Source: Sabulicella rubraurantiaca | Lineage (GTDB): Bacteria; Pseudomonadota; Alphaproteobacteria; Acetobacterales; Acetobacteraceae | Direction: 5' to 3' | Length of the DNA: 64,000 bases | Assembly (NCBI RefSeq): GCF_017355885.1 | Contig: NZ_JAFEUU010000002.1 | Location: 434,001-498,000, forward strand | Shown here: positions 24,558-52,506 of the stretch, one piece after another | How positions within the stretch are numbered: position 1 is the first letter of the stretch | How the letters are laid out: each line of letters begins with the position of its first letter | Position numbers and translations under genes: made by a program | The notes under the pieces: generated by a model | Seen by the model: only the letters and a program-made list of their open reading frames with translations | Told to the model about the DNA's origin: nothing | Database searches by the model: none

Positions 24558-25964
24558 ATGCGCTATGTTTCCACCCGTGGCGAAGCCGCCCCCCGCGGCT
24601 TCGAGGATGTCCTGCTTGCCGGGCTGGCGGAGGATGGTGGGCTGTTCCTGCCCGCATCCTGGCCCAGCTTCTCGGCCGCCGAATGGCGCGAGATGCGCGG
24701 CCTGCCCTATGCGGAGTTGGCCGCCCGGGTGATCCATCCCTTCACCGGCGGGTCCATCCCATTCGAGACGCTGCTGGGTCTGTGCCGGGATTCCTATGCC
24801 GGGTTCCGCCACCCCGCCGTGGCGCCGCTGGTGCAGCTGGACTCGCGCTCCTTCGCGCTGGAGCTGTTCCACGGCCCTACCCTGGCCTTCAAGGACATGG
24901 CCTTGCAGCTGCTTGGGCGGCTCTTCGACCACGTGCTGGCGAAGCGGGGCGAGCGCATCACCATTGTCGGCGCCACCTCGGGCGACACTGGCTCTGCCGC
25001 CATCGAGGCGTGCCGGGACCGCGCCTCGGTGGACATCGTGATCCTGCACCCGCTGGGCCGCACCTCGGAGGTGCAGCGGCGGCAGATGACCACGGTGCTG
25101 TCGCCCAATGTCGCCAACCTCGCCATCGAAGGCAGCTTCGACGACTGCCAGGATCTGGTGAAGGCGATGTTCGTGGATGCGCCCTTCCGGGAGGAGATGC
25201 GCCTCGCCGCGGTGAACAGCATCAACTGGGCGCGCATCGCGGCGCAGATCCCCTACTATGCCGCCGCTGCCCTGGCCCTCGGCGCGCCGGAGCGCGAGGT
25301 GGCGGTCAGCGTGCCCACTGGGAATTTCGGCAACGTGCTGGCGGCCTGGGCGGCGAAGCGCATGGGTCTGCCCATCGCCCGCTTCATCGTCGGCTCCAAC
25401 CGCAACGATATCCTGGTGCGCTTCCTCGCCTCCAACGACATGAGCGCGAAGCCGGTGGAGCCCTCGCTCTCGCCCTCCATGGACATCCAGGTCTCCTCCA
25501 ATTTCGAGCGGCTGCTTTACGGCCTGCTGGGCGACGACCCGGCCGCCACCGCGCGGGTGATGCGGGAATTCCGTGCCACCGGCCGGATGCCGGTGCCCGA
25601 TGCCGCCTGGCGCGCCGCCTCGGCGCAGTTCCAGGGCTTCACCCTGGATGATGCCGGCACGCTGGAGGAAATCCGCCGCGTGCACCGCGCCTCCGGCTAC
25701 CTGCTGGACCCGCACACTGCCATCGGCACCGCCGCCGCCCGCGCCTTGGCGCCGGAAGACAAGGGGATGCCGGTGATCGTCGCCGCCACTGCCCACCCGG
25801 CCAAGTTCCCCGACGCGGTGGAACAGGCCACCGGGCTGCGCCCCGCCCTGCCCCCCGCCCTTGCCGACCTCTACGAGCGGGAGGAGCGCCTCGCCGTGCT
25901 GCCGAACGACTTGCGTGAGACGCAGGGCTTTGTGCGTAGTCATGCACTGCGCAACGCCGCCTGA
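24558..25964 (+). CDS. thrC: threonine synthase
   Basis: A 468-residue PLP enzyme of the long threonine synthase type (MRYVSTRGEA... start, as in proteobacterial ThrC), converting O-phosphohomoserine to threonine. The PLP lysine is K112 in HGPTLAFKDMALQLLG; the phosphate loop is GATSGDTGSAA; NSINWARI and VSVPTGNFGNVLA are further landmarks. The gene is 33 bases after gcvP and 17 bases before the M16 peptidase, an order seen widely next to thrC in alphaproteobacteria. A second, distant ThrC-like protein at 48146-49261 is shorter and probably does a different reaction. Confidence 0.96.
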   Translation: MRYVSTRGEAAPRGFEDVLLAGLAEDGGLFLPASWPSFSAAEWREMRGLPYAELAARVIHPFTGGSIPFETLLGLCRDSYAGFRHPAVAPLVQLDSRSFALELFHGPTLAFKDMALQLLGRLFDHVLAKRGERITIVGATSGDTGSAAIEACRDRASVDIVILHPLGRTSEVQRRQMTTVLSPNVANLAIEGSFDDCQDLVKAMFVDAPFREEMRLAAVNSINWARIAAQIPYYAAAALALGAPEREVAVSVPTGNFGNVLAAWAAKRMGLPIARFIVGSNRNDILVRFLASNDMSAKPVEPSLSPSMDIQVSSNFERLLYGLLGDDPAATARVMREFRATGRMPVPDAAWRAASAQFQGFTLDDAGTLEEIRRVHRASGYLLDPHTAIGTAAARALAPEDKGMPVIVAATAHPAKFPDAVEQATGLRPALPPALADLYEREERLAVLPNDLRETQGFVRSHALRNAA

Positions 25965-40110: not shown

Positions 40111-41145
40111 ATGGCTGCCATCGCCCTGTCCCGGCTCTCCAAGCGTTTCGCCCCCGGCGCGCCCCCCGCGCTGGAGGAGGTTTCGCTCGACATCGCCCCT
40201 GGCGAGGTGTTCGGCATCGTCGGTCGTTCCGGCGCCGGGAAGTCCACCCTCATCCGCTGCGTGAACCTGCTGGAGCGGCCGGATTCCGGCCGGGTCGAGG
40301 TGCTGGGCCAGGATCTGATGGCCCTGGACGAGCCGGCCTTGCGCGCGGCGCGGCGCGGGATGGGCATGGTGTTCCAACACTTCAACCTCCATGCCCGCCG
40401 CACCGTGGCCGAGAACGTCGCCTTCCCGCTGGAAGTGGCGGGCATGGCGCGGGCGGAGCGGGAGCGGCGCGTGGCTGAACTCCTGCCGCTGGTGGGGCTG
40501 GAGGCCAAGCGCGACGCCTATCCGGCGCAGCTATCCGGCGGGCAGAAGCAGCGCGTGGGCATTGCCCGGGCGCTGGCCAGCGGCCCGCGCATCCTGCTTT
40601 GCGACGAGGCGACCAGCGCCCTCGACCCCGAGACGACCGCCGAGATCCTGGCGCTGATCCGCGACCTGCGGGCGCGGCTCGACCTCACCGTGCTGCTCAT
40701 CACCCATGAGATGGCGGTGGTGAAGTCGGTCTGCGACCGTGTGGCGGTGATGGAGGCAGGACGCGTGATCGAGGAAGGCCCGGTCTTCGGCGTCTTCACC
40801 CGGCCGCGCCAGCCCACTACGCGCCGCTTCGTGGCCGAGGTGATCGGCCATTCCGTCCCGCCCGGCACTCTCTCCCGCCTGCCGCAGCCCAATCCCGGCG
40901 AGGCGCGGCGCCTCGTGCAGGTGCTCTTCGCCGGGCCCAACTCCACCCGCGCGGTGGTGAGCGAGGCCAGCCGTGACTTCGGCGTGGACATGAACATCGT
41001 CAGTGGCCGCGTGGACGAGATCGCGGGCGAGCCCTTCGGCGTCATGGCCCTCGCCGCCTATGGCGCGCCGGACAAGCTGGAAGGCGCGCTGGGCTGGATG
41101 CGCTCCCTCGGCCTCCACGTCACCGAGCTGGGAGAAGCGGCATGA
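40111..41145 (+). CDS. metN: methionine ABC transporter ATP-binding protein
   Basis: A 344-residue ABC ATPase. Walker A GRSGAGKST (residues 38-46), the Q-loop MVFQHFNL, signature LSGGQKQRVGIARAL, Walker B ILLCDEATSALDP and switch His in LLITHEM are all present. The C-terminal NIL domain (about 265-340, beginning LVQVLFAGPNS) is specific to MetN and senses intracellular methionine. It overlaps metI (ATGA) and is followed by metQ, which together form a D/L-methionine importer. A TATCCT hexamer just before the ATG is a possible -10 element. Confidence 0.95.
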   Translation: MAAIALSRLSKRFAPGAPPALEEVSLDIAPGEVFGIVGRSGAGKSTLIRCVNLLERPDSGRVEVLGQDLMALDEPALRAARRGMGMVFQHFNLHARRTVAENVAFPLEVAGMARAERERRVAELLPLVGLEAKRDAYPAQLSGGQKQRVGIARALASGPRILLCDEATSALDPETTAEILALIRDLRARLDLTVLLITHEMAVVKSVCDRVAVMEAGRVIEEGPVFGVFTRPRQPTTRRFVAEVIGHSVPPGTLSRLPQPNPGEARRLVQVLFAGPNSTRAVVSEASRDFGVDMNIVSGRVDEIAGEPFGVMALAAYGAPDKLEGALGWMRSLGLHVTELGEAA

Positions 41146-41804
41146 ACTGGCTGACCCCCGCCATGGTGGACCTCCTCGTCGAGGGATTCTGGGAGACGCT
41201 GGTGATGGTCGGCATCTCCGCCGCTATCGCCGTCGCGCTTGGTCTGCCGCTGGCGCTGCTGCTCCACGCCACCGGGCCGGGCGGGCTGTCGCCGCGGCCC
41301 TGGATGAACCGGCCGCTCGGCCTGCTGGTCAATGCGGTGCGCTCCACCCCCTTCATCATCCTGATGGTGGCGATCGTGCCCTTCACCCGCCTCGTCGCCG
41401 GGACCTCCATCGGCACAGGGGCGGCGGTGGTGCCGCTGGCCCTGGCCGCCACCGCCTTCCTGGCGCGGCTTTTCGAGAACGCGCTGCGCGAGGTGGACCG
41501 AGGCGTGATCGAGGCGGCGCGCGCCATGGGCGCGACCCGGATGCAGATCGTCACCAAGGTGCTGGTGCCGGAGGCCCTGCCGGGGCTGATCGCCGCCACC
41601 ACCGTGGCCCTCGTCTCGCTGGTCGGCTTCTCGGCCATGGCGGGGGCGGTCGGGGGCGGCGGGCTCGGCGACCTGGGCATCCGCTTCGGCTACCAGCGCT
41701 TCATGCCCGAGGTGATGCTCACCGTCGTGCTCGTGCTGATCCTGTTCGTGCAGGGCCTGCAATCCCTGGGGGATTGGCTGGTCCGCCGGCTTTCGCGTCG
41801 CTGA
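41142..41804 (+). CDS. metI: methionine ABC transporter permease
   Basis: A 220-residue inner-membrane permease with about five hydrophobic helices. RSTPFIILMVAIVPFTRLVAGTSIG and the EAA loop VIEAARAMGATRMQIVTKVLVPEALPGL, which docks onto MetN, are diagnostic of MetI. The start ATG overlaps the metN stop as ATGA, so the two subunits are translationally coupled. Confidence 0.96.
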   Translation: MNWLTPAMVDLLVEGFWETLVMVGISAAIAVALGLPLALLLHATGPGGLSPRPWMNRPLGLLVNAVRSTPFIILMVAIVPFTRLVAGTSIGTGAAVVPLALAATAFLARLFENALREVDRGVIEAARAMGATRMQIVTKVLVPEALPGLIAATTVALVSLVGFSAMAGAVGGGGLGDLGIRFGYQRFMPEVMLTVVLVLILFVQGLQSLGDWLVRRLSRR

Positions 41805-41824
41805 ACCCACAAGGAAACACCCCC

Positions 41825-42628
41825 ATGACCGCTCGCCGTCCCCTCCTGCTCGCGGGCCTTGCCCTGCCCTTCGCAGCGGCCGCCCAGTCCCCCGCCATCG
41901 GCACACAGGGGCGCCCGCTGCGCATCGGCGTCACCGCCGGGCCACACGCGCAGATCATGGAGAAGGTGCGCGAGGTGGCGGGGCGCGACGGGCTCGTGCT
42001 GCGCATCACCGAGTTCAGTGACTACATCCAGCCCAACGCAGCGCTGGCCGCGGGCGACCTGGACGCCAATTCCTACCAGCACCAGCCCTTCCTCGATCAG
42101 CAGGTGCGCGACCGCCGCCTGCCGCTGGTTGCCGTGGCTCGCACCGTCATCTTCCCGATGGGCGTGTATTCGCGCCGCCATCGCCGCTTGGCCGACATCC
42201 CGCAGGGCGGCCGCGTCGCCATCCCCAACGATCCCACCAATGGCGGCCGGGCCCTGGTGCTGCTCGCCTCAAACGGCGCCTTCCGCCTGCGCGGCGAGGG
42301 GGATTTCCGCTCCACCGTCGCCGACATCACGGAGAACCCGAAGCGCATCCGCGTCGTGGAGCTTGAAGCGGCCCAGCTGCCCCGCGCGCTGGACGAGGTG
42401 GAGGCCGCAGCGATCAACAGCAACTTCGCCATCCAGGCGGGGCTGAACCCGGTGCGCGACGCCATCGCCATCGAGGGCGCGGACAACCCTTACAGCAACC
42501 TGATCGCCGTGCGGCAGGCGGATCGCGAGGCGGAGTGGGTGCGCCGCCTCGTCGCCGCCTATCACTCGGCGGAAGTGAAGGAGTTCGTCACCGCCACCTT
42601 CCAGGGCGCGGTGGTGCCAGCCTTCTGA
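41825..42628 (+). CDS. metQ: methionine ABC transporter substrate-binding protein (MetQ/NlpA family)
   Basis: A 267-residue periplasmic receptor. A signal peptide (RRPLLLAGLALPFAAAAQ) precedes the NlpA-family mature domain with LRIGVTAGPHAQIMEKV, DYIQPNAALAAGDLDANSYQH, and NSNFAIQAGLNP. No lipobox cysteine follows the signal, unlike enterobacterial MetQ, so this copy is probably soluble in the periplasm. It completes the metN-metI-metQ importer, 20 bases behind metI with AAGGAA as a ribosome-binding site. Confidence 0.93.
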   Translation: MTARRPLLLAGLALPFAAAAQSPAIGTQGRPLRIGVTAGPHAQIMEKVREVAGRDGLVLRITEFSDYIQPNAALAAGDLDANSYQHQPFLDQQVRDRRLPLVAVARTVIFPMGVYSRRHRRLADIPQGGRVAIPNDPTNGGRALVLLASNGAFRLRGEGDFRSTVADITENPKRIRVVELEAAQLPRALDEVEAAAINSNFAIQAGLNPVRDAIAIEGADNPYSNLIAVRQADREAEWVRRLVAAYHSAEVKEFVTATFQGAVVPAF

Positions 42629-42698
42629 GGCCGCGCGGGCGTTGCCATTCCGCATCGACCATGGCCCAATCCGGCCAAGTCGAAGGAATAGAAACGCC

Positions 42699-43493
42699 AT
42701 GGAACGTCGCACGATGCTGGCCGCCGGGGCACTCGCCCTTGCGGCCACCCCTTCCCTCGCCCAGCAGCAGGCCGCCACGCCCAAGACCTATGTGCTGGTG
42801 CATGGCGCATGGGGCGGCGGCTGGATCTGGAAGCACACGGCCGAAGGGCTGCGCGCCAAGGGCCATCGCGTCTTCACCCCCACCCAGACCGGGCTGGGCG
42901 AGCGCAAGCACCTCATGGCGCGCTCCATCACCATCGACACCTTCGTGGAGGACATCGCCGCCGTCCTGCTTGCGGAGGACCTGCGCGACGTGATCCTGGT
43001 CGGCCATTCCTTTGGCGGCTTCGCCGTCACCGGGGTGGCGGACCGCATGCCCGACCGCATTCGGCACCTGGTCTATCTGGACGCGCTGCTGCCGGAGAAT
43101 GGCGACACCGCCTTCGCCGTGCTGCCGCCCGGCATTGAGGAGGCGCGCCGCCGCACCGTGGCCGAGCAGGGTGGCGGCGTCGCCCTTCCCGTCCCTCCGC
43201 TTTCCGCCTTTCCCTTGCCCGATGACGTGCGCGCCTGGTTCGGCCGGCAGCTCGCGCCGCATCCCTTCGGCACCTACGACACGCCGCTCCGGCTGAAGGC
43301 GCCGCCGGGCGCCGGCCGGCCCGTCACCTACGTCTCCTACACCAACCCGCCCCTCGCCTCGATCGAGCCGAGCCGGGTGCGGGCACGGGCCAAGCAGGCG
43401 CAGGGCTGGCGCTTCATGGAGATGGACGTGCCGCACGACGCCCAGGCCGCGGTGCCCGAGCGGATCATCGCCCTGCTGGACGGCATCAACTAG
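42699..43493 (+). CDS. exported alpha/beta hydrolase
   Basis: A 264-residue alpha/beta hydrolase of the EstC/salicylate-esterase-like group. A signal peptide (RRTMLAAGALALAATPSLA) is followed by YVLVHGAWGGGWIW (oxyanion loop), TQTGLGERKHL, and the nucleophile elbow VGHSFGG. The catalytic histidine is probably in MDVPHDAQ near the C-terminus, and LDALLPENGD is typical of the group. The substrate is unknown. It follows metQ by 70 bases with no clear terminator and precedes the aldolase gene by 32 bases. Confidence 0.85.
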   Translation: MERRTMLAAGALALAATPSLAQQQAATPKTYVLVHGAWGGGWIWKHTAEGLRAKGHRVFTPTQTGLGERKHLMARSITIDTFVEDIAAVLLAEDLRDVILVGHSFGGFAVTGVADRMPDRIRHLVYLDALLPENGDTAFAVLPPGIEEARRRTVAEQGGGVALPVPPLSAFPLPDDVRAWFGRQLAPHPFGTYDTPLRLKAPPGAGRPVTYVSYTNPPLASIEPSRVRARAKQAQGWRFMEMDVPHDAQAAVPERIIALLDGIN

Positions 43494-43525
43494 CGACCGC
43501 TGGCCCTTCAAGGGAGAAATCGGGG

Positions 43526-44302
43526 ATGCCCCATGCCACCTGGCGCCAGCGCCTGCTCGCGCCCGGCCTGAAGCTCGGCCTCTTTGCCATGGAGTTCGCG
43601 ACGCCTGGCCTGCCACTGATCGTGCGGCAAGCCGGAGCGGATTTCATGGTGCTCGACATGGAGCATTCGGGCTTCGGCTTCGAGACGGTGAAGACGGTTT
43701 GCGTGGGCGGAAGGGCCGCCGACCTGCCCGTCATCGTCCGTGTCGCGCATCGCCATCCGAATGAGGTGTCGCGCGCCCTGGACATGGGGGCGGACGGGCT
43801 GATGGCGCCCCTCGTCTCCTCCGCTGCCGAGGCGCGGGACTTCGTCGCCTGGGCCACCTATCCGCCATCGGGCGGCACGCGCGGCGCGGCGATGGGCATC
43901 GCGCATGACGGCTACCGCCCCGGCCCCGCCGTCGTGAAGATGGCGGAGGCGGATGCGCGCAAGGCCATCATCATCCAAATCGAGACGCGCGCGGGCGCGG
44001 AGGATGCGGACGCCATCGCGGCCGTGGAGGGGGTGGATTGCCTCTGGATCGGCCACAACGACCTGTCCTGCTCGCTCGGAATTCCCGGCCAGTTCGACCA
44101 CCCCGATTTCCACGCGGTCGAAGCGCGGGTGCGCGAGGCGGCGAAGCGGCACGGCAAGGCCTTTGGCCGTCTCGCCACCTCGGCCGGTGAGGCGAAGGCG
44201 CTGGCGGCGCGCGGCTACGACACGCTGGGCCTGTGTTCCGACATCATGGCGCTGCACTCGCGCATCGCGGAGGGCGTGTCGCTGGTGCGTGAGGGCGGCT
44301 AG
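43526..44302 (+). CDS. HpcH/HpaI aldolase/citrate lyase family protein
   Basis: A 258-residue TIM-barrel lyase. Landmarks: FMVLDMEHSGFGFETV, VRVAHRHPNEVSRALDMGADGLMAPLV (metal-binding region of class II pyruvate aldolases), IIQIETRAGAEDADAI with the metal-ligand Glu, and VDCLWIGHNDLSCSLG. Such enzymes cleave 2-keto-3-deoxy or 4-hydroxy-2-keto acids to pyruvate and an aldehyde. It sits at the edge of the catabolic island and could act on a product made there (inference). The tail overlaps an inverted repeat at 44301. Confidence 0.88.
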   Translation: MPHATWRQRLLAPGLKLGLFAMEFATPGLPLIVRQAGADFMVLDMEHSGFGFETVKTVCVGGRAADLPVIVRVAHRHPNEVSRALDMGADGLMAPLVSSAAEARDFVAWATYPPSGGTRGAAMGIAHDGYRPGPAVVKMAEADARKAIIIQIETRAGAEDADAIAAVEGVDCLWIGHNDLSCSLGIPGQFDHPDFHAVEARVREAAKRHGKAFGRLATSAGEAKALAARGYDTLGLCSDIMALHSRIAEGVSLVREGG

Positions 44303-44360: not shown

Positions 44361-45185
44361 CTACCGCGGGCGGGTGAGTTCCGGCAGGGCGAGGCGCTTC
44401 ACCGCCTCCTCCCCGGCCGCCGCCATGCGCGCGGGGCCGATCGCCGCAGTCGGGTCCTCGGCGTTGCGCCATTCCTTGTATTCGTCGCGGTAGTCCCAGC
44501 CCGCGCCCTCGGCCAGCAGGTGGACCCAGTTCACGACGCGGATGCCATGGTCGCGCTCCAGCGCCACCATCTCGCGGTGACAGGAATGGAAGATGGTCAC
44601 GATGGTGTCCGCCCCCGCTTCCCGCGCCGCCGCCAGCAGCCGCGCCTTGTGGGCGGGCAGCGCACCCGGCACGTTGGCCAAGCCGAAGCACATGTAGGAC
44701 GCGCCGCGATACGGGTGGTCCAGCATCTCCACCCCGGGCACGAGGCGCAGCAACTCCGGAATCAGCGTGTTCACGTCCACGCGATCGCCGAAGCCCACAT
44801 GCGCATCCAGCAACACCCGCGCCGGGATGTGCTGCGTCATCAGCTTCGCCAGCGCGCCGCGGCCTTCGTGCAGCGCCTCGCAGAGATGTGCGTGGCGGAA
44901 ACCCTGGCCCTTCACCGGGGCCATGAAATCCTCGAGGTTCATGTGGCAAGAGGGGCACCAGGTCATCACCCGCTCCGCCTCACGCGCCGCGAACCCATCC
45001 ATGGTGCGCGCGGCCATCGCCTCGTTGATGCGGGGCTCGCTCTCCTTGGGGCTGCCGCAGCAGGCGCCCGGCCCGCCGACGGGTTGCGCCGGCGTGCCGA
45101 CGCATTCCAGCAGCCGTTCCGACAGGCGGATGATCTCCGCATGGCGGGTCATGTTGCAGCCGTACCAGAACAGGTTCACAGCCAT
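44361..45185 (-). CDS. HdrB/LutA-like CCG-domain iron-sulfur protein
   Basis: A 274-residue protein with two cysteine-rich CCG-type domains, as in heterodisulfide reductase HdrB, GlpC and LutA. The first is complete: FWYGCNMTRH, GACCGSPKES and WCPSCHMN. The second is degenerate: YMCFGLAN replaces the CCG triplet, although FHSCHREM remains. Such proteins hold a special 4Fe-4S centre and pass electrons between a dehydrogenase and the quinone pool or disulfides. ATG 45185 overlaps the HdrC-like gene by 10 bases. No HdrA or flavoprotein partner is adjacent, so the electron donor is unknown. Confidence 0.82.
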   Translation of the reverse strand: MAVNLFWYGCNMTRHAEIIRLSERLLECVGTPAQPVGGPGACCGSPKESEPRINEAMAARTMDGFAAREAERVMTWCPSCHMNLEDFMAPVKGQGFRHAHLCEALHEGRGALAKLMTQHIPARVLLDAHVGFGDRVDVNTLIPELLRLVPGVEMLDHPYRGASYMCFGLANVPGALPAHKARLLAAAREAGADTIVTIFHSCHREMVALERDHGIRVVNWVHLLAEGAGWDYRDEYKEWRNAEDPTAAIGPARMAAAGEEAVKRLALPELTRPR

Positions 45186-45571
45186 CGCGCCTGCTCCTCC
45201 TCCGTCATGGTCAGCCGCGCGAAGGCCTTGACCCGGGCCATCGCGTCGCGCGCGTCGCGCTTGGGCAGGGCGCCCGTCTCGTTGGCCCGCCACTTGGCGA
45301 GGCGCAGCATCAGCATCGGGTTCACCGCCTCCGGGCAGGCGGCGTTGCAGGAGCCGGAGCGGGTGCAGGCGGCGACCCAGGCGCGCGAGGCCTCGTCGCC
45401 CGGCCCGCCATTGAGCAGGTCCAGCACGCCCTCCACCACGGCGCCGCCCTGGGCGCCCTCGGCGCCCGGCGCGAATGGCACCATGGGGCAGGCGGCGAAG
45501 CAGGCGCCGCAACGCAGGCAGGCGGCGGTGATGCGCGCCGTCTCCGCCTCGCGCAGCGCCGAGAGGCTCAC
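45176..45571 (-). CDS. HdrC-like 4Fe-4S ferredoxin protein
   Basis: A 131-residue ferredoxin-like protein with two iron-sulfur motifs. The first, CLRCGACFAACP, is a complete C-x2-C-x2-C-x3-CP cluster. The second, CTRSGSCNAACP, has serine where the second cysteine would be, so it has only three canonical ligands. The partner HdrB-like gene overlaps its end. I prefer GTG 45571, which overlaps the D-threonine-aldolase-family stop as GTGA, in line with the neighbouring gene junctions; ATG 45592 would add seven residues. It presumably feeds electrons between the HdrB-like subunit and an unidentified dehydrogenase. Confidence 0.8.
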   Translation of the reverse strand: MSLSALREAETARITAACLRCGACFAACPMVPFAPGAEGAQGGAVVEGVLDLLNGGPGDEASRAWVAACTRSGSCNAACPEAVNPMLMLRLAKWRANETGALPKRDARDAMARVKAFARLTMTEEEQARWL

Positions 45572-46653
45572 CAGTGGTTCACCCGGTCCCATGTGGCGAT
45601 CACCTCGCGCGATCCGTCCACCACATGATAGCGGTCAAAGGCCGCCGCTGTCAGGCATGTGTGGTTGGGGGCGACGCGCAGCTTGGTGCCCACCGGCATG
45701 TCGGGCATGGGATGCGCCTCGCCGTGCTCCTGGTGGACACGGGTCAGAACCGCGTGGCCGAAGGCGCGCTTCCCATCCAGATCCAGCACGAGGCCGAACC
45801 CGTCGTCGCGCGGCGCCTTCTCGGTGGATCGGTCCTTGCTCATCGCCAGGGCGCCGCTGTCCAGCAGCAGCGCGTCCCGTGCCGGCTTGCGGCCGATGAC
45901 GCTGGCCAGCACCGTCACGGCGATCTCGCCCTCCGGATGCGTGCCGAGCTGCTCCTGGAACAGGTCGCCGAACATGTAGACGCCGGCGCGCACCTCGGTG
46001 ATGCCCTCCAGGCTCTTCGCATGCAGCGCGGTCGGGGAGGAGCCGAGCGAGACGATGCGCAGCTGGTGCCCGGCCTCGCGCAGCGCGGCGGCGGCGCGGG
46101 TGACGCCCAGCCGTTCCTCCTCCGCGATGCGGGCCATCTCCTCCAGGGAGCGGCCGCCATAGGAATGACCGGCATGGGTGAAGACGCCGGCCAGGCGCGA
46201 ACCGAGCGCTGCCGCGACCGCCTTGGCCTCCTCGGGCGGGACGCCGCCGCGCCCCTCGCCCACATCCACCTCCACCAGCGCCTCGACCGCGCCGGGATGG
46301 GCGGCGACCGCGCGCGCCGCCTCGGCATCGTCGGTGATGACCTTCACCTGCGCGCCTTCCGCGTTCAGCGCCGCGACCGCATCCAGCTTCCCCGGCGTGA
46401 TGCCCACGGCATAGATCTGGTCACGCCAGCCCGCCTTCGCGAAGTACCGCGCCTCGGCCAGGGTGGAGACGGTGATGGGGCCGCCATCCGGCGCGGCCAG
46501 CTTTGCCACCTCGATGCTCTTGGCGGTCTTGAGGTGAGGGCGCAGCACCACGCCCGGATGGCGCTCAAGCGCGCGGCGCATCATGGCAAGGTTGCGCCGG
46601 AGCACACCGAGGTCCAGCACGAGGGCGGGGGTGAGCAGGTCGTCGAGGGTCAT
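45568..46653 (-). CDS. D-threonine aldolase/D-serine dehydratase-like PLP enzyme (fold type III)
   Basis: A 361-residue fold-type III PLP enzyme of the D-TA/DSD1 family. The Schiff-base lysine is in LRPHLKTAKS near residue 42. SLGSSPTALHA, VRAGVYMFGD and the metal-binding C-terminal segment APNHTCLTAA (His and Cys ligands) are present. Family members split or dehydrate D-beta-hydroxy amino acids (D-threonine, D-serine, beta-hydroxyaspartate), using a divalent metal. It overlaps the M81 gene upstream (ATGA) and the HdrC-like gene downstream (GTGA), so the products are made together. The exact substrate is open. Confidence 0.87.
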   Translation of the reverse strand: MTLDDLLTPALVLDLGVLRRNLAMMRRALERHPGVVLRPHLKTAKSIEVAKLAAPDGGPITVSTLAEARYFAKAGWRDQIYAVGITPGKLDAVAALNAEGAQVKVITDDAEAARAVAAHPGAVEALVEVDVGEGRGGVPPEEAKAVAAALGSRLAGVFTHAGHSYGGRSLEEMARIAEEERLGVTRAAAALREAGHQLRIVSLGSSPTALHAKSLEGITEVRAGVYMFGDLFQEQLGTHPEGEIAVTVLASVIGRKPARDALLLDSGALAMSKDRSTEKAPRDDGFGLVLDLDGKRAFGHAVLTRVHQEHGEAHPMPDMPVGTKLRVAPNHTCLTAAAFDRYHVVDGSREVIATWDRVNHW

Positions 46654-48149
46654 CGCGTGGTCTCGGAATCCAGGGGCAGCACGGGGCGCGGCAGCTTCTG
46701 CCAGTCGAAGCGGGACAGGATGGGCGAAGTGAGGCCCGGCGCGTCCACCTCCACGATGCGCTCGTGGTCAAAGAACTCGTCGAAGCCGCCGCGGAAATGC
46801 CCGCGCGACTTCACCACCACGCAGCGCGCCTGGGCGATGTCGATGCCCAGATGCTCCAGGAAGGCAGGGTCGGCGCATTGGGTGCGGCCCTCGATCACCA
46901 CCACCTCGATCCCGCCCAAGCGCAGCCGTGCCGTACGGCCCATCTGCATGGCCGTGCCCTTGAAGATGCCGCGCCGCCCGGTGACGCGTCCGTCGGAAAG
47001 CGCCACCACCTCCGCTTGCGCCGCGAAGGGGCGGGCAAAGGGGTCCTGGCCGGAATCACGGTTGAACCGCGCCTCGAACCGCGCACCGATCCCGAGGCGA
47101 TGCGCCTCGACCGCCAGTTCGGGATCGTGGATCACGCCGAACACCGCGCCCTTCACGCCGGCGCGATGGAAGGATTCCAGTATCCACATGGTGTTGCCGC
47201 GGCCGCCGCCGCCGGGGTTGTCGGCGACATCGGCGAAGGCGAGTGGCACGTCGCTGGTCAGGGCGCGCTGCGTCGCTTCCTCCAGCTCCGTCAGCGCGGC
47301 GACGAAGCGGTGGCGCCGCTCCCATGCCGCCTCGGCCAGCTCATCGGCCAGCGCATCCGCCGCGCCCTGGTGCGTCGCCGTCACCACGGCGCACATGCCG
47401 TTGAAGGGCGTGTCGCCATAGGCGAAGCCCGCCATCACCGAGACATTGACGATGCGCGGATCGGTGGCGGCGCGCTCCTGGCCCAAATTGATGACCTCGG
47501 CATAGGGGCCCTGCGCCGTCAGCAGAGACACGGTGGGCGCCACGATGGGCAGGCGGCGATGCGCGCGCACGAAGCGCTCGCCGGCCAGCAATCGGCGCAT
47601 CAGGTCAGCGGATTCCGCGCCACGCTCGCGCATGTCGAGATGCGGATTGGTCCGGTAGCCCACGAAGGCATCGTTCAGCGCCACGTTGGCGTCGGACACA
47701 TTGGCATGCAGGTCGTAGGAGCAAATGAAGGGCACCTCGCCCAGCTCGCTCCGCACCAGCGCCTGCAAGGCACCTTCCGGGTCGTCCAGAACGGTCGTCA
47801 GTCCTGCGCCGTGCAGCACCGCATAGGCGCCTTCCACCTCGCCGCGCAGGACGCGCAGCCCCTCGCGCCATTCCTCCATCATCGAGAGGAACAGCGCGTG
47901 GTCCACCGGGCCGTTCGGCTCGGCCATGGCGAGCATGATCGGGCGCGGCTGCCAGGGGCCGGTCTCGTCCATGCGGGTGACGAAGCCCGGCATCTCGCCC
48001 AGGGCCTGCGGCGCGGCGGAGCGCGCGTCGGAAACGATGGCATCGCCGCGCAGCCAGCAGCGCGTGCTGAAATCCTCCAGCCCGGCGGGAGGCGCGAAAC
48101 GGTTGCACTCGATGGAGAAGCCCAGCAGGGCGATGCGCGGGCCGCTCAT
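46650..48149 (-). CDS. M81 family metallohydrolase (MlrC-like), copy 2
   Basis: A 499-residue M81 protein with the same landmarks as the copy at 4506: ALLGFSIECNRFAPP, RMDETGPWQPRP, SYDLHANVSDANVAL, YRTNPHLDMRERGAESADL, DVADNPGGGGRGNT and GIDIAQARCVVVKSRGHFRGGFDEFF. It is embedded in a tight minus-strand operon, overlapping both the ThrC-like gene before it and the D-TA-like gene after it by four bases (ATGA). ATG 48149 is chosen from that overlap and from family alignment; the frame extending to 48398 is antisense artefact. It probably hydrolyses an amide or peptide bond in the compound that the island degrades. Confidence 0.88.
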   Translation of the reverse strand: MSGPRIALLGFSIECNRFAPPAGLEDFSTRCWLRGDAIVSDARSAAPQALGEMPGFVTRMDETGPWQPRPIMLAMAEPNGPVDHALFLSMMEEWREGLRVLRGEVEGAYAVLHGAGLTTVLDDPEGALQALVRSELGEVPFICSYDLHANVSDANVALNDAFVGYRTNPHLDMRERGAESADLMRRLLAGERFVRAHRRLPIVAPTVSLLTAQGPYAEVINLGQERAATDPRIVNVSVMAGFAYGDTPFNGMCAVVTATHQGAADALADELAEAAWERRHRFVAALTELEEATQRALTSDVPLAFADVADNPGGGGRGNTMWILESFHRAGVKGAVFGVIHDPELAVEAHRLGIGARFEARFNRDSGQDPFARPFAAQAEVVALSDGRVTGRRGIFKGTAMQMGRTARLRLGGIEVVVIEGRTQCADPAFLEHLGIDIAQARCVVVKSRGHFRGGFDEFFDHERIVEVDAPGLTSPILSRFDWQKLPRPVLPLDSETTR

Positions 48150-49261
48150 ATCTCCACCCCCAGCATCTCGGCGAAGCGGGGCGTCGCCTTCAGCCCGGTC
48201 CCGGTCAGCAGCACCACCGTGGTCTCGCGCGCGGCGATGCGCCCCTGGTCCAGCAGCTTGGTGAAGGCGGCGGCGGCCTGAGCACAGGTGGGTTCCACAT
48301 AGACGCCACGCCGGGCCAGGGCCAAAGCGGCCTCGGCGATCTCGCTCTCCTCGGTGAGCACGGCACCGCCTTCCGACTCGCGCAGGGCGCGCAGGCATTC
48401 AGGCAGGCGCAGCGGCTTGGCGATGGCCGTGCCCTCGGCGATGGTGGGCCGCGCCTCCTGCTCCGGCAGGCCGAGCGCGGCGCGGGCGATGGGCCCGCAA
48501 TTCGCCGGCTGCGACGCCCAGATGCGCGGCAGCTTCGCCACCTGTCCGGCGCGCAGCAATTCGGTGAAGCCGAGCCACAGGCCGAGCACATTGGAGCCGG
48601 CGCCGCAGGGCACGATGACGTTGTCCGGCGCGCGGAAGCCCAGATCCTCCCAGAGCTCATAGGCCAGGGTCTTGGTACCTTCCAGGAAGAAGGGGTGCCA
48701 GTTGTGGCTGGCGTAGAAGATGCGCTCCGCCGCCGCCTCGGCCGCTTCGGCGCAATCCTGCCGGCTGCCCGGCACCAGGGTGATGGATGCCCCTGCCGCG
48801 CGGCTCTGCACCGTCTTGGCCGGGGAGGTTGAGGCAGGCACGTAGATCTCCGCCTGCATGCCGCCTGCTGCCGCATAGGCGCTGACCGCCGCGCCGCCAT
48901 TGCCGGAGGAATCCTCCAGCACCGCCCGCACCCCCTGCTCGCGCAGGAGGGAGAGCATCACGGAGGCGCCGCGATCCTTGAAGGAGCCGGTGGGCATGAA
49001 CCACTCGCACTTGGCGAGGGCCGTCCCCTCGCCCAGCCGCATCTCCACCAGCGGCGTGCAGCCCTCACCCATGGTGATGGGCGCAGCGGGCAGGAAGGGC
49101 AGCGCGGCGGCGTAGCGCCAGATGGAGCGGACGGGCGCGATGTCGTCGCGGGAGATGCCGGGAAGCGGGGTCAGCAGCAGCGGTTCGCGCGCATCGCCGC
49201 ACCAGCGGGGCGTGTCCAGCGGCCAGGTGCGGCCGCTGCGTGGGTCGAGATAGGAAGCCAT
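48146..49261 (-). CDS. threonine synthase-like PLP enzyme (fold type II)
   Basis: A 371-residue fold-type II PLP enzyme. The Schiff-base lysine is in PTGSFKDRGA (about residue 95), the cofactor phosphate loop is SSGNGGAAVSAYAA, and CGAGSNVLGLW follows. It is closest in style to threonine synthase/threonine dehydratase, but it is nearly 100 residues shorter than the biosynthetic ThrC at 24558 and starts differently (MASYLDPRSGRTWPLDTPRWCG). A beta-elimination or lyase role on a hydroxy or substituted amino acid fits the operon better than threonine synthesis (inference). Its stop overlaps the M81 start, and it is divergent from the M20 gene with 50 bases between starts. Confidence 0.82.
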   Translation of the reverse strand: MASYLDPRSGRTWPLDTPRWCGDAREPLLLTPLPGISRDDIAPVRSIWRYAAALPFLPAAPITMGEGCTPLVEMRLGEGTALAKCEWFMPTGSFKDRGASVMLSLLREQGVRAVLEDSSGNGGAAVSAYAAAGGMQAEIYVPASTSPAKTVQSRAAGASITLVPGSRQDCAEAAEAAAERIFYASHNWHPFFLEGTKTLAYELWEDLGFRAPDNVIVPCGAGSNVLGLWLGFTELLRAGQVAKLPRIWASQPANCGPIARAALGLPEQEARPTIAEGTAIAKPLRLPECLRALRESEGGAVLTEESEIAEAALALARRGVYVEPTCAQAAAAFTKLLDQGRIAARETTVVLLTGTGLKATPRFAEMLGVEI

Positions 49262-49311
49262 GCGTCCGGCAGGGTTGCCCTTCCGACCGCTTCGGGCAAG
49301 CCTCCGACCCC

Positions 49312-50409
49312 ATGGAAACCAGCCTCGCCGGCCTCGCCGCGGAACTTGTGCGGCTCGACAGCCGATCCTCCGTCTCCAACCTGTCCGTCGCCGAGCGCAT
49401 CGAGGCCGAGTTGCATGGTTTCGAGGTGGAGCGCCTCGACTACACCGACGCGCAGGGCGTCCCGAAGCGTGCCCTGGTGGCGCATCGCGGCGGGCCGGGC
49501 GGCATCGCCCTGTCGGGCCACATGGACACGGTGCCCGAGACAGGCTGGACCGACGACCCATGGTCGGGCGCGGTGCGGGATGGCGTGCTGCACGGGCTCG
49601 GCTCCTGCGACATGAAGGGGCCGGTCGCCGCCTGCATCCTGGCCGCCCAGGCCGCGCCCCGCGCCACGCTGCTGATCACCGCGGATGAGGAGACGACCAA
49701 GGGCGGCGCACGCGTCATCGCCGAGCGCTCCGAACTGGCCCGCGCCGCGAAGCTGCGCGGCATCGTGGTGGCGGAGCCGACGGAGCTGGTGCCGGTGCGC
49801 GGCCATCGCTCGCACATCGCCTTCACCGCCACCGCGCGCGGGGTGCAGGCGCATTCCTCGACCGGGCGCGGGGTGAACGCCAACTGGGCGCTGATCCCCT
49901 TCCTGGCGGAGCTGCGCGAGATCCACGCGATGCTGCGCGAGGATCCGGCGTGGCACGACGAGGCCTACGACCCGCCCTTCTCGGATTTCAACCTTGTCGT
50001 CGACAACCATGGCACGGCGGTGAACGTCTCCGTGCCCCTGGCCACGGCGCGGGTGAAGTTCCGCTACTCCCACCGGCTGGACCCGAGCCCGCTCCTGTCA
50101 CGCATGGAGGCGGCGGCGCGGAGCGCCGGGGTGGAGCTGGAAATAGCGCGCGAAGGCCTGCCGCCGGAGCTTCCGGTCGAGCACCCGCTGGTGCGCCAAG
50201 CCGTCCGCCTCACCGGCCGTGCCCCGTCCACCGTGCCCTTTGGCACCGATGCCTCCATCCTGCAGGATGTCGCGCCCTGCGTGATCCTGGGGCCGGGCTC
50301 CATCGCCCTGGCGCACACGCCGCGCGAGCACGTGCCCCTTGCGGCGCTGGAAGCGGCGCGGGAGCTGTATCTGCGCCTTCTCAACGACAACGATACGGAA
50401 ACGGCCTGA
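49312..50409 (+). CDS. M20 family zinc deacylase/peptidase (ArgE/DapE/LysK type)
   Basis: A 365-residue M20 hydrolase. Metal and catalytic residues are visible in ALSGHMDTVPE (metal His and bridging Asp), GSCDMKGPVAA, and TADEETTKGGAR (catalytic Glu pair); HTPREHVPL carries the last metal His. The group includes acetylornithine deacetylase, succinyl-diaminopimelate desuccinylase and LysK, all removing acyl groups from amino-acid nitrogens. It is divergent from the ThrC-like/M81/D-TA operon and 3 bases from the acyl-CoA synthetase gene, so release and activation of an acid from an N-acyl amino acid is plausible (inference). Confidence 0.86.
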   Translation: METSLAGLAAELVRLDSRSSVSNLSVAERIEAELHGFEVERLDYTDAQGVPKRALVAHRGGPGGIALSGHMDTVPETGWTDDPWSGAVRDGVLHGLGSCDMKGPVAACILAAQAAPRATLLITADEETTKGGARVIAERSELARAAKLRGIVVAEPTELVPVRGHRSHIAFTATARGVQAHSSTGRGVNANWALIPFLAELREIHAMLREDPAWHDEAYDPPFSDFNLVVDNHGTAVNVSVPLATARVKFRYSHRLDPSPLLSRMEAAARSAGVELEIAREGLPPELPVEHPLVRQAVRLTGRAPSTVPFGTDASILQDVAPCVILGPGSIALAHTPREHVPLAALEAARELYLRLLNDNDTETA

Positions 50410-50412
50410 ACC

Positions 50413-52506
50413 ATGGATTTCTCCACGCTCGACCCGATGATCCGCCCCCGCTCCCTCGCCGTGATCGGCGCGAGCGACGATGCGACGCGCATCGGCGGCC
50501 GTCCCATCGCCTACATGAAGACGCGCGGCTTCCGGGGCGAGCTGTGGCCGGTGAACCCGAAGCGCGACACCGTGCAGGGCATCAAGTGCTTCAGCGGCGT
50601 AGAATCTCTGCCGGGCGTACCGGATGTCGGCCTCATCGCGGTGCCGGGCAGCGCCGCGCTCGATGCCGTGGAGGCGCTGGGCGAGAAGGGCTGCAAGGCC
50701 GCCATCATGTTCACCGCCGGCTTCGCCGAGACGGGCGACGAGGGCGCGCTGATGCAGGACAAGCTGGTGGCGGCGGCGCGGCGCAACGGCATGCGGCTGC
50801 TCGGCCCCAACTGCCTCGGCCTGTTCAACGACGCGATCGGCTTCTACCCGATCTTCTCCTCCTCCTTCGAGCAGGGCTGGCCGGTGCCGGGGCGCATCGG
50901 CATCGCCTCGCAATCCGGCGCCTATGGCACGCACCTGTTCTCGCTGGCACGCATCCGCAACATCGGCACGCCGATCTGCGTCACCACGGGCAACGAGGCC
51001 GAGGTGGCGCTGGGCGACGTGCTCGGCTGGATGGCCGAGGCGCCGGAGGTGGACGTGATCTGCGCCTATGCGGAAGGCATCCGCGAGAGCGAGAAGTTCC
51101 TCGCCGCGCTGGACCTCGCGCGGCGCAACCGCAAGCCCATCGTCATGATGAAGGTCGGCCGCTCGGCGCTGGGTGGCCTCGCCGCGCAATCACACACTGC
51201 CTCCATCGCCGGCGACGACGCGGTGACGGATGCGGTGCTGGCGGAATACGGCGTGGTCCGCGCCCGCAACACGGAGGAGCTGCTGGACATCGCCTATGCC
51301 GCAACGCGCCGCGTGTACCCGGCGCGCAACTCGCTGGGCGTCATCACCGTCTCCGGCGGCGCCGGCGTGCTGATCTCCGACGTCGCGGAATCGCTCGACT
51401 TCCCGATGCCGCCCATGCCGGAGGAGGCGCAGAAGAAGCTGCTCGGCTTCGTGCCCTTCTGCGCACCGCGCAACCCGGTAGACTGCACCGCCCAGGCCTT
51501 CAACCAGATCGAGCTGGTGGGCGAGTTCGCGCGCGCCACGGCGGCGGAGGGCGGGTATTCGTCGCTGCTCGGCTTCTTCACCCAGGTCGGCGGCTCGCCC
51601 ACCGTGGGGCCGAAGGTGCGGGCCCAGATGAAGGCGGTGGCGGAGGAGCATCCGGACCGGCTCTGGGCCGTCTCCATCATCGCCCCGCCCGAGACGGCGC
51701 AGGAATGGGAGAAGGACGGGTTCCTGGTCTTCGAGGACCCGACCCGCGCCGTCGTCGCGCTCCACGCCATGGGCCGCTTCGGGGAGGCCTTCGCGCGCGG
51801 CGGCGAGGCCGCGCCCCAGCCCGCCCCGGTCGCCTTGCCCGCCACGGCGCCCAGCGAAGCGAAGGCGAAGCAGATCCTCGACGCGGCGGGCGTGCCCGCC
51901 GTGCCGGAGGAAGCCTGCGCGGATGCGGAGGCCGCGGTCGCGGCGGCGCGGCGCTTCGGCTTCCCCGTGGTGATGAAGATCCTCTCGCCCGACATCCTGC
52001 ACAAATCCGAGATCGGCGGCGTGCTGCTGGACGTCGGGGACGAGGAGGCCGTGCGGGCCGGCTTCGCCACGCTGATGCAGCGCGCGAAGCAGCACGCGCC
52101 CGGGGCGCGCATCGAGGGCGCGCTGGTGGCGAAGCAGATCAAGGGCGCGGTGGAGATGGCCATGGGGATCCTGCGCGACCCCGTCTTCGGGCCGGTCGCC
52201 ATGGTCGGGCTTGGCGGCGTGTTCATCGAGGTGCTGAAGGATGTCGCCTTCCGCCGCTGCCCCTTCGACGCGGCCGAGGCGGAGCGGCTGATCCGCTCGC
52301 TCAAGGGCTTCCCCCTGCTCGACGGCGCGCGCGGCCGGCCCAAGGCTGACGTGCCGGCCCTGGCGCAGGCGCTCTCCGCCCTGTCGCTCTTCGCTGCGGG
52401 CGCGGGGCCACGCCTGCTGTCGGTGGACGTGAACCCGGTGCTTGTCCTGCCCGAGGGCGCCTATGCCGCCGATGCGGTGATCGAGCTGGACGCGGCCGAA
52501 AGCTGA
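50413..52506 (+). CDS. ADP-forming acyl-CoA synthetase (acetate--CoA ligase family), fused subunits
   Basis: A 697-residue fusion: CoA-binding domain (about 8-130, RPRSLAVIGASDD, then RGELWPVNPK), two succinyl-CoA-ligase-like domains with the phosphohistidine in AQSHTASIAGDDAV, and a C-terminal ATP-grasp domain (about 480-690, PVVMKILSPDILHKSEIGGV and MVGLGGVFIEVLKD). This is the NDP-forming acyl-CoA synthetase type, which interconverts an acid, CoA and ATP with acyl-CoA, ADP and phosphate. The start lies 3 bases after the M20 deacylase, so the two are one operon. The acid is unknown. Confidence 0.88.
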   Translation: MDFSTLDPMIRPRSLAVIGASDDATRIGGRPIAYMKTRGFRGELWPVNPKRDTVQGIKCFSGVESLPGVPDVGLIAVPGSAALDAVEALGEKGCKAAIMFTAGFAETGDEGALMQDKLVAAARRNGMRLLGPNCLGLFNDAIGFYPIFSSSFEQGWPVPGRIGIASQSGAYGTHLFSLARIRNIGTPICVTTGNEAEVALGDVLGWMAEAPEVDVICAYAEGIRESEKFLAALDLARRNRKPIVMMKVGRSALGGLAAQSHTASIAGDDAVTDAVLAEYGVVRARNTEELLDIAYAATRRVYPARNSLGVITVSGGAGVLISDVAESLDFPMPPMPEEAQKKLLGFVPFCAPRNPVDCTAQAFNQIELVGEFARATAAEGGYSSLLGFFTQVGGSPTVGPKVRAQMKAVAEEHPDRLWAVSIIAPPETAQEWEKDGFLVFEDPTRAVVALHAMGRFGEAFARGGEAAPQPAPVALPATAPSEAKAKQILDAAGVPAVPEEACADAEAAVAAARRFGFPVVMKILSPDILHKSEIGGVLLDVGDEEAVRAGFATLMQRAKQHAPGARIEGALVAKQIKGAVEMAMGILRDPVFGPVAMVGLGGVFIEVLKDVAFRRCPFDAAEAERLIRSLKGFPLLDGARGRPKADVPALAQALSALSLFAAGAGPRLLSVDVNPVLVLPEGAYAADAVIELDAAES

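What the first reader, a model, noticed from the sequence alone, without database searches (positions are those of the whole stretch)
44361..52506. Divergent catabolic island with no pathway I can name
The minus arm, ThrC-like PLP enzyme, M81 hydrolase, D-TA-family enzyme, HdrC-like and HdrB-like proteins, is stitched together by four-base stop/start overlaps at most junctions. The plus arm is an M20 deacylase and an ADP-forming acyl-CoA synthetase, three bases apart. Amide hydrolysis, deacylation, PLP-dependent cleavage or elimination of a beta-hydroxy amino acid, an electron-transfer pair and acid activation could form one degradation route for an N-acylated or peptide-linked hydroxy amino acid. 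The D-TA plus fold-II PLP pair recalls the beta-hydroxyaspartate cycle, but the BhcA and BhcD partners are missing.
Basis: inference. Interest (0 to 1): 0.72.

Follow-up and report, generated by a model that had tools for sequence, protein, structure and literature searches.

The report
Conserved hydroxy-amino-acid breakdown operon
Bacteria related to Roseomonas keep a set of neighbouring genes that most likely breaks down a modified form of a rare amino acid such as 3-hydroxyaspartate; the gene set is real and shared, but its exact food molecule still has to be shown by experiment.

Summary
In detail: seven intact genes at 44361-52506 with the overlaps described. They are not a chance assembly. 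PALP enzyme, DSD-type enzyme and M20 sit together in 32 of 53 HdrB loci with enough flanking DNA. In the 5 near-complete genomes searched where HdrC-HdrB lies elsewhere, all 5 still carry PALP, DSD and M20. The two arms share a short gap with an inverted repeat found in 35 of 40 loci checked, so co-regulation is likely.

The interpretation changes. The 'D-TA' protein belongs to the zinc dehydratase branch (D-threo-3-hydroxyaspartate dehydratase, D-serine dehydratase), not the aldolases. The 'ThrC-like' enzyme is not threonine synthase. The CoA ligase is a lineage-limited add-on. Relatives add a C4-dicarboxylate transporter, a Rid-family protein and, in another family, a BhcD-like iminosuccinate reductase beside M81-DSD. 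Best guess: release and dehydration of a beta-hydroxy dicarboxylic amino acid such as 3-hydroxyaspartate.

The role of HdrC-HdrB (altered second Fe-S sites, no linked flavoprotein seen) and the PALP substrate stay open. Eight searches of the held library showed no description of this gene set. Probably a new variant of a known kind.

The parts
44361..45185 (-). HdrB-like CCG-domain protein; first CCG motif intact, second degenerate
   Evidence: Pfam CCG; fold matches HdrB 8rwn TM 0.65 and LutA 9a6l TM 0.55; alignment of 20 orthologs; motif counts
45176..45571 (-). HdrC-like ferredoxin-type protein; cluster 1 CxxCxxCxxxCP, cluster 2 C-x2-S-x2-C-x3-CP
   Evidence: Pfam Fer4_10/Fer4_8; alignment of 17 orthologs; Ser/Thr-type motif 2 in 50 of 52
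45568..46653 (-).
   Evidence: best PDB 3wqc, 245 bits over residues 3-361; PNHxC in 42 of 42 relatives
46650..48149 (-). M81-family metallohydrolase (MlrC-like)
   Evidence: Pfam M81 229 bits, MlrC_C 154 bits; Zn ligands of MlrC aligned; conserved motifs
48146..49261 (-). Fold-II PLP enzyme of the threonine-synthase branch that is not threonine synthase
   Evidence: PALP 231 bits; NCBIfam threonine-synthase cut-offs missed; Phe at the column of the ThrC Arg
49262..49311 (.). 50-bp divergent control region shared by both arms
   Evidence: gap 45-50 bp in 22 of 31 relatives measured
49274..49300 (.). 27-bp inverted repeat (CTTGC...GCAAC); possible overlapping divergent promoters or operator
   Evidence: pattern in 27 of 27 short gaps, shuffle mean 0.006, and in 35 of 40 loci when all were checked; single match in the window
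49312..50409 (+). M20 metallohydrolase, ArgE/DapE-like deacylase
   Evidence: Pfam M20; best PDB acetylornithine deacetylase 7rsf, 124 bits; conserved motifs in 34 sequences
50413..52506 (+). NDP(ADP)-forming acyl-CoA synthetase; lineage-limited addition
   Evidence: Pfam CoA_binding_2, Succ_CoA_lig, ATP-grasp_5; in 15 of 32 full loci

Best explanation
A conserved catabolic operon of Roseomonas-type Acetobacteraceae that releases and deaminates a beta-hydroxy dicarboxylic amino acid, most likely a 3-hydroxyaspartate isomer, from an amide-linked or N-acylated form. Proposed steps: (1) uptake, by DctA in some relatives (inferred); (2) M81 and M20 hydrolases free the amino acid (families shown, substrate inferred); (3) the PLP/Zn DSD-type enzyme dehydrates the hydroxy amino acid to an enamine/iminosuccinate (family and metal motif shown, reaction inferred); (4) the imine hydrolyses to oxaloacetate + NH4+, perhaps helped by the Rid-family protein of relatives, or is reduced to aspartate by a BhcD-like enzyme in another family (inferred); (5) the fold-II PALP enzyme handles a second substrate or isomer by elimination (inferred); (6) HdrC-HdrB carries electrons from an oxidation step, in the manner of LutA/LutB or GlcF, to the quinone pool (inferred); (7) in Roseococcus/Rubritepida/Rhodovarius-type genomes a released acid is activated by the acyl-CoA synthetase (inferred). 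Both arms are driven from one symmetric divergent control region (sequence shown, function inferred).
For: Co-occurrence in 32 of 53 loci, and in all 5 near-complete genomes searched in which HdrC-HdrB is unlinked. DSD-type enzyme closest to D-threo-3-hydroxyaspartate dehydratase (245 bits) against 57-82 bits for D-threonine aldolases; His/Cys metal pair of the dehydratases, not His/Asp (for the published pairs, for 42 of 42). One representative DctA passes its cut-off (626 vs 513); DctA is in 6 of 7 full loci without M81 and 3 of 25 with M81. BhcD-like protein (best NCBIfam BhcD 371 bits, next 245; best PDB iminosuccinate reductase 6rqa 274 bits, next 211) beside M81-DSD in G500, with a near-copy in G423. 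Rid-family gene near HdrC in 11 of 32 full loci. Inverted repeat in 35 of 40 divergent gaps.
Against: No substrate is shown. BhcB, BhcC and BhcD cut-offs are missed. The window genome has no BhcD over cut-off (118 of 500 bits), and DctA and Rid genes are absent from the window locus. All 27 Rid proteins read have Ser where E. coli RidA has its catalytic Arg (recalled), so they may not be enamine hydrolases. DSD homologues are common without this set: 60 of 385 class genomes, and of 29 short neighbourhoods read 2 have M81 and none PALP next to DSD. Outside the family, of 15 PALP loci 1 has M81 and M20, 1 has a DSD-family neighbour (35 %, closer to the BhcC model) and 13 have no close member of the set. 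Of the 19 HdrCB-only loci, the genomes of only 5 were searched for PALP/DSD. L070 and L145 hold M81-DSD-HdrC-HdrB without PALP or M20 nearby; G129 (73 % complete) has no PALP found. The DctA/M81 exclusion is not corrected for kinship (5 of the 7 M81-less loci are Belnapia). D-serine remains possible on sequence alone.
Confidence: 0.42

Rival explanations
1. The same operon degrades D-serine, D-threonine or another monocarboxylic D-beta-hydroxy amino acid (free or N-acylated) to a 2-oxo acid; dicarboxylates are incidental.
For: Zn D-serine dehydratase 3anu is the next characterised relative (147 bits); the same His/Cys pair is published for it; an M20 deacylase lies next door.
Against: 245 bits to D-threo-3-hydroxyaspartate dehydratase; a DctA rather than an SstT in relatives (626 vs 101 bits, one representative); BhcD-like neighbour in another family.
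Confidence: 0.25
2. The operon degrades an N-substituted diamino or amino-polycarboxylic compound (diaminopropionate-type or aminopolycarboxylate conjugates), the PALP enzyme doing the main beta-elimination.
For: PALP + M20 pairing recalls E. coli ygeX/ygeY (recalled); HdrC-HdrB stands beside a Lyase_1 protein in L043/L045 and a luciferase-like monooxygenase in L049/L050 (one of each pair scanned).
Against: M20 scores 214 bits to ArgE and at most 86 to YgeY models; those lyase and monooxygenase neighbours lie in genomes where the PALP-DSD unit is elsewhere.
Confidence: 0.15
3. Two separate functions share a neighbourhood: a PALP-M81-DSD-M20 amino-acid unit and an independent Rid-HdrC-HdrB redox unit.
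For: 19 of 53 loci have HdrC-HdrB without PALP/DSD nearby, and the genomes of 14 of these were not searched; M81-PALP-M20 without HdrCB nearby in L162.
Against: All 5 near-complete genomes searched with unlinked HdrCB still carry PALP, DSD and M20; overlapping genes across the joint in the window and Rid>HdrC 4 bp in 11 of 13.
Confidence: 0.15

Closest known systems
D-threo-3-hydroxyaspartate dehydratase (Delftia sp. HT23) and Zn-dependent D-serine dehydratase
   Same: Fold-III PLP enzyme, whole-length match, His-x-Cys metal pair
   Different: Here one part of a seven-gene set; activity untested
Beta-hydroxyaspartate cycle (bhcABCD)
   Same: A fold-II and a fold-III PLP enzyme; a BhcD-like protein beside M81-DSD in one other family
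   Different: BhcB and BhcC models missed by far (72 of 550, 104 of 690 bits); dehydratase branch, not aldolase; BhcA not searched
Microcystinase MlrC (M81)
   Same: M81 family, Zn ligands aligned
   Different: 107 of 999 bits to the MlrC model; mlrA/B/D not searched for
LutA/LutB, GlcF and heterodisulfide reductase HdrB/HdrC
   Same: CCG fold plus two-cluster ferredoxin-type protein
   Different: Second site without a CCG motif in 65 of 65, second Fe-S motif with Ser/Thr for one Cys in 50 of 52; no flavoprotein among the neighbours scanned
Threonine synthase
   Same: Fold-II PALP, GSFKDRG lysine motif
   Different: Cut-offs missed; Arg replaced by Phe; a true ThrC lies elsewhere in the window

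Membership tests
Zn-dependent D-serine / D-threo-3-hydroxyaspartate dehydratase family | Ala_racemase_N plus D-ser_dehydrat domains | tested here: met
   90 and 64 bits, both over cut-off
Zn-dependent D-serine / D-threo-3-hydroxyaspartate dehydratase family | His and Cys metal ligands | tested here: met
   PNHTC aligned to PNHAC of 3wqc, while chains 4pb3 and 3wqg differ exactly at that His or Cys; 42 of 42 relatives
Zn-dependent D-serine / D-threo-3-hydroxyaspartate dehydratase family | Dehydratase activity on 3-hydroxyaspartate | not testable with these tools
   needs purified enzyme
D-threonine aldolase | His and Asp metal ligands | tested here: not met
   published pair His347/Asp349; Cys here; 57-82 bits
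Beta-hydroxyaspartate cycle | BhcB and BhcC over NCBIfam cut-off in this locus | tested here: not met
   72 of 550 and 104 of 690 bits
Beta-hydroxyaspartate cycle | BhcD in the genome | tested here: not met
   best 118 of 500 bits
Beta-hydroxyaspartate cycle | BhcA aminotransferase | not tested
   no search made
Threonine synthase | NCBIfam equivalog cut-off | tested here: not met
   225.7 of 301 and 126.6 of 167.1 bits
Threonine synthase | Arg that binds the substrate phosphate (role recalled) | tested here: not met
   Phe at that column in the window and all 20 rows of A3
M81 metallopeptidases | Domain and Zn ligands E, D, H, H | tested here: met
   ligands aligned
Heterodisulfide reductase HdrB | Two intact CCG cluster motifs | tested here: not met
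   second CCG motif in 0 of 65
Heterodisulfide reductase | Linked HdrA-type flavoprotein | tested here: not met
   none among the neighbours scanned; a PF12831 protein lies about 68 kb away and its orthologues occur in only 11 of 21 HdrB genomes
RidA enamine/imine deaminase (relatives only) | Catalytic Arg (recalled) | tested here: not met
   PAS(T/A/S)C motif in 27 of 27; TIGR00004 38 of 106 bits for one representative
DctA C4-dicarboxylate transporter (relatives only) | NCBIfam DctA cut-off | tested here: met
   NF002461 626 of 513 bits; the second DctA model is just missed, 559 of 570 (one representative)

The most novel reading that the evidence does not exclude
An undescribed route for assimilating amide-bound or N-acylated 3-hydroxyaspartate by dehydration rather than aldol cleavage, with entry either through an M81 hydrolase or through DctA, coupled to a flavin-free, LutA-like HdrC-HdrB pair whose second cluster sites have been rebuilt, and using a non-ThrC member of the threonine-synthase branch with a new elimination activity.
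Probability: 0.25. Interest if true: 0.72.

Novelty: new variant of a known kind. Interest (0 to 1): 0.52.

Why it matters
This genome alone has six M81 genes, yet the only M81 activity I know is the breakdown of linearised microcystin and nodularin. A conserved partnership with a 3-hydroxyaspartate-dehydratase-type enzyme, an M20 deacylase and an HdrC-HdrB pair makes the natural role of M81 hydrolases and of stand-alone HdrCB proteins directly testable, and could add a second bacterial route for 3-hydroxyaspartate beside the beta-hydroxyaspartate cycle.

Tried and rejected
Rejected: D-threonine aldolase (metal motif, scores). Rejected: PALP enzyme as the cell's threonine synthase (window:24558-25964 passes TIGR00260 with 256 of 167 bits). 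Weakened: FAD_oxidored (PF12831) as the obligatory partner of HdrC-HdrB. It stands beside HdrCB in L139 and beside M81-PALP-M20 in L162 and co-occurs more than expected (21 genomes with HdrB, 22 with FADox, 11 with both among 150, Fisher p 8e-6; kinship not corrected; 5 distant FADox matches of 35-37 % and 10 distant HdrB matches were dropped before the count), but both same-genus genomes lack it. Weakened: Rid protein as a certain enamine hydrolase (Arg lost). Led nowhere: neighbours of PALP homologues in other families (tartrate dehydrogenase, RraA, FMN dehydrogenase, class V aminotransferase, AMP ligase, GTP-cyclohydrolase-like) are too mixed to name its substrate; dTDP-rhamnose genes after the unit in L257 look incidental; the plasmid search gave one weak hit; the search for the ThrC phosphate-binding Arg gave nothing usable.
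Full report
What is there. The seven genes are intact and placed as described. Pfam places each above a cut-off. Among the named contigs the closest HdrB relative is in Roseococcus sp. MDT2-1-1 (94 %, L067). Against L067 dN/dS is 0.07-0.17 for all seven genes; against the more distant L069 and L071 it is 0.20-0.42, except 0.70 for HdrC/L071.

It is one unit. HdrB was found at E <= 1e-20 in 31 of 150 family genomes, the window's included. Of these 21 are close orthologues (51 % identity or more) and 10 are distant (28-33 %), with HdrC and HdrB fused in one frame and GlcF-like in length (not scanned). A pattern scan of GTDB genomes gave 79 loci; 77 carry titles naming Acetobacteraceae or its genera, Rhodospirillales or Alphaproteobacteria, and 2 Hyphomicrobiales. 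L144, a fragment, was dropped. Of the other 78, 53 hold at least 7.4 kb upstream of HdrB. Of these 53, 32 have PALP, DSD and M20 within 9 kb, 2 (L070, L145) have M81-DSD-HdrC-HdrB without PALP and M20, and 19 have neither PALP nor DSD. Of the 32, M81 is in 25, ACD in 15, the Rid gene in 11 and DctA in 9. The 15 with ACD have titles Roseococcus, Rubritepida, Rhodovarius or unnamed Acetobacteraceae. L068 (shorter flank, not counted) has PALP, DSD, M20 and ACD but neither M81 nor DctA.

Unlinked cases. Seven of the genomes first fetched have HdrB apart from PALP; all seven were searched for PALP and DSD, with five others. Five of the seven are at least 90 % complete (G024, G112, G047, G127, G077): all 5 carry PALP (69-76 %) and DSD (60-74 %), and all 5 have M20 beside PALP; 3 of 5 have M81 beside DSD and 2 of 5 DctA. 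In G077 PALP-M20 and M81-DSD are on different contigs. G129 (73 % complete) has M81-DSD but no PALP found. G120 looks unlinked only because of a contig end: L258 begins with HdrC-Rid-DSD-M81-PALP-M20.

Outside the family. PALP at E <= 1e-90 is in 15 other of 385 class genomes. Of these 15 loci, L162 has M81-PALP-M20 (M81 75 %, M20 67 %), L170 has a DSD-family neighbour (35 %, BhcC model 180 of 690 bits), and 13 have no close member of the set; L164 and L167 hold only distant M81 homologues of 28-29 %. DSD is in 60 of 385 class genomes at E <= 1e-50; of 29 short neighbourhoods read, 2 (L216, L218) have M81 next to it.

Coupling and control. Overlaps are conserved: PALP>M81 4 bp in 19 of 27, M81>DSD 4 bp in 20 of 27, Rid>HdrC 4 bp in 11 of 13, HdrC>HdrB 10 bp in 24 of 35 (starts from my own gene caller). 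The gap between PALP and M20 is 45-50 bp in 22 of 31. In 27 gaps of 36-57 bp (window and 26 relatives) CTTG(C/T)...GCAA(C/G) spans 27 bp in 25 and 28 bp in 2; composition shuffles give a mean of 0.006 of 27. A later check of further loci found it also in L076, L079 and L111 (27 bp), L255 and L256 (27 bp), L262 (28 bp) and, shortened to 23 bp, in L254 and L257, but not in L084, L089, L258 and L259 (gaps over 600 bp) or L162: 35 of 40. In L069, L080, L085 and L103 M20 was not called above 60 % and the gap was not read. The sequences are related, so this is conservation, not independent evidence. The pattern occurs once in the window, in this gap; chance expectation is 0.43. It can be read as two facing -35 boxes of overlapping, nearly leaderless promoters, or as an operator; either way both arms are probably controlled together (inference).

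The fold-III enzyme. Its closest solved relatives are D-threo-3-hydroxyaspartate dehydratase (245 bits, 3wqc), the uncharacterised 3llx (227) and chicken D-serine dehydratase (147); D-threonine aldolases score 57-82 and the hydroxyaspartate aldolase 72 bits. PMC4401734 (passages read) states that the aldolase binds its metal by His347 and Asp349, while the serine dehydratase and 3LLX use a His and a Cys. The window has PNHTC there; 42 of 42 relatives keep PNHxC, and 28 of 29 class homologues NHxC. PMC8071972 (passages read) reports that the Delftia enzyme degrades D-threo-3-hydroxyaspartate and L-erythro-3-hydroxyaspartate. So 'dehydratase of a beta-hydroxy amino acid' is well supported; the exact substrate is not.

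Why a dicarboxylate. Some relatives carry a DctA between DSD and HdrC; the one scanned passes one DctA cut-off (626 vs 513), just misses a second (559 vs 570), and scores 323 of 638 as GltP and 101 of 308 as SstT. DctA is in 6 of 7 full loci that lack M81 and in 3 of 25 that have it (Fisher p 6e-4; 5 of the 7 are Belnapia, so kinship may explain it). The unlinked loci follow the same pattern: G024 and G112 DctA without M81, G047 and G127 M81 without DctA. In G423 and G500, another family, M81 and DSD (4-bp overlap) converge with a protein whose best NCBIfam model is iminosuccinate reductase BhcD (371 bits; cut-off 500 not met; next 245) and whose best solved relative is iminosuccinate reductase 6rqa (274 bits, next 211); it was scanned in G500 only, G423 having a near-copy. 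Genes of a peptide-type ABC importer (its binding protein scanned, GsiB model 133 of 594 bits) and a LysR-family regulator lie beside it. An imine reductase of that kind beside a hydroxyaspartate-dehydratase-type enzyme is the best single pointer to iminosuccinate.

The other proteins. The PALP protein misses every threonine-synthase cut-off. Its relatives keep GSFKDRG in 49 of 49, and the 20 of A3 have Phe where solved threonine synthases align an Arg, an Arg I recall as binding the substrate phosphate. M81 keeps the published MlrC zinc ligands in alignment (PMC9982164, passages read); among 31 relatives NPHxD is in 31, DLHAN in 26 and the N-terminal Glu motif in 28. M20 is closest to ArgE-type deacylases and its motifs are conserved in 34 sequences. 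The HdrB model (mean pLDDT 88) matches HdrB (TM 0.65) and LutA (0.55). The first CCG site matches my pattern in 60 of 65 relatives; the second has no CCG in 65 of 65 but HSCH in 65 of 65; HdrC has Ser or Thr in place of one Cys of cluster 2 in 50 of 52. An electron-transfer role is likely, but with altered clusters. No flavoprotein was seen among the neighbours scanned; the FAD_oxidored candidate is only partly co-inherited.

Print record. Eight searches of the held PMC library did not show a description of this gene set; from these I saw listings and starts of abstracts, and passages only of PMC4401734, PMC8071972, PMC9982164 and PMC11323563. Most subscription papers are not held.

Verdict. 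The best reading is release and dehydration of a hydroxy dicarboxylic amino acid, at moderate confidence.

Noticed in passing
window 4506-6032 (+): A second M81 protein in the same window, 50 % identical to the cluster M81 of L143; the genome has six M81 genes.
   Followed up: partly
L242:7020-11004 and L204:6329-9740 (window genome, other places): Other M81 paralogues stand beside an AllC/HyuC-type amidase and an M20 deacylase, or beside another M20 hydrolase, suggesting that M81 often works with deacylases.
   Followed up: partly
window 24558-25964 (+): Genuine threonine synthase (TIGR00260 over cut-off).
   Followed up: yes
window 40111-44302 (+): Genes that look like a MetNIQ-type ABC importer (from sequence, not scanned), an alpha/beta hydrolase and an HpcH/HpaI-family aldolase, convergent with HdrB; kept in L067.
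   Followed up: no
L203:8888-10399 (-): FAD_oxidored protein of the window genome, 60 % identical to one that sits beside HdrC-HdrB in a Hyphomicrobiaceae contig.
   Followed up: partly
L039, L040 (Rhodovarius-type loci): CoA-transferase, acyl-CoA dehydrogenase and enoyl-CoA hydratase genes near the unit: after HdrB in L040, on the ACD side in L039; MaoC follows ACD in L037 and L038 (one representative of each scanned).
   Followed up: partly
L168, L237-L241: The PALP homologue (about 60 %) is present in six genomes of one genus of another family, with a GTP-cyclohydrolase-like gene beside it in five of the six stretches read and no M81 or DSD next to it.
   Followed up: no
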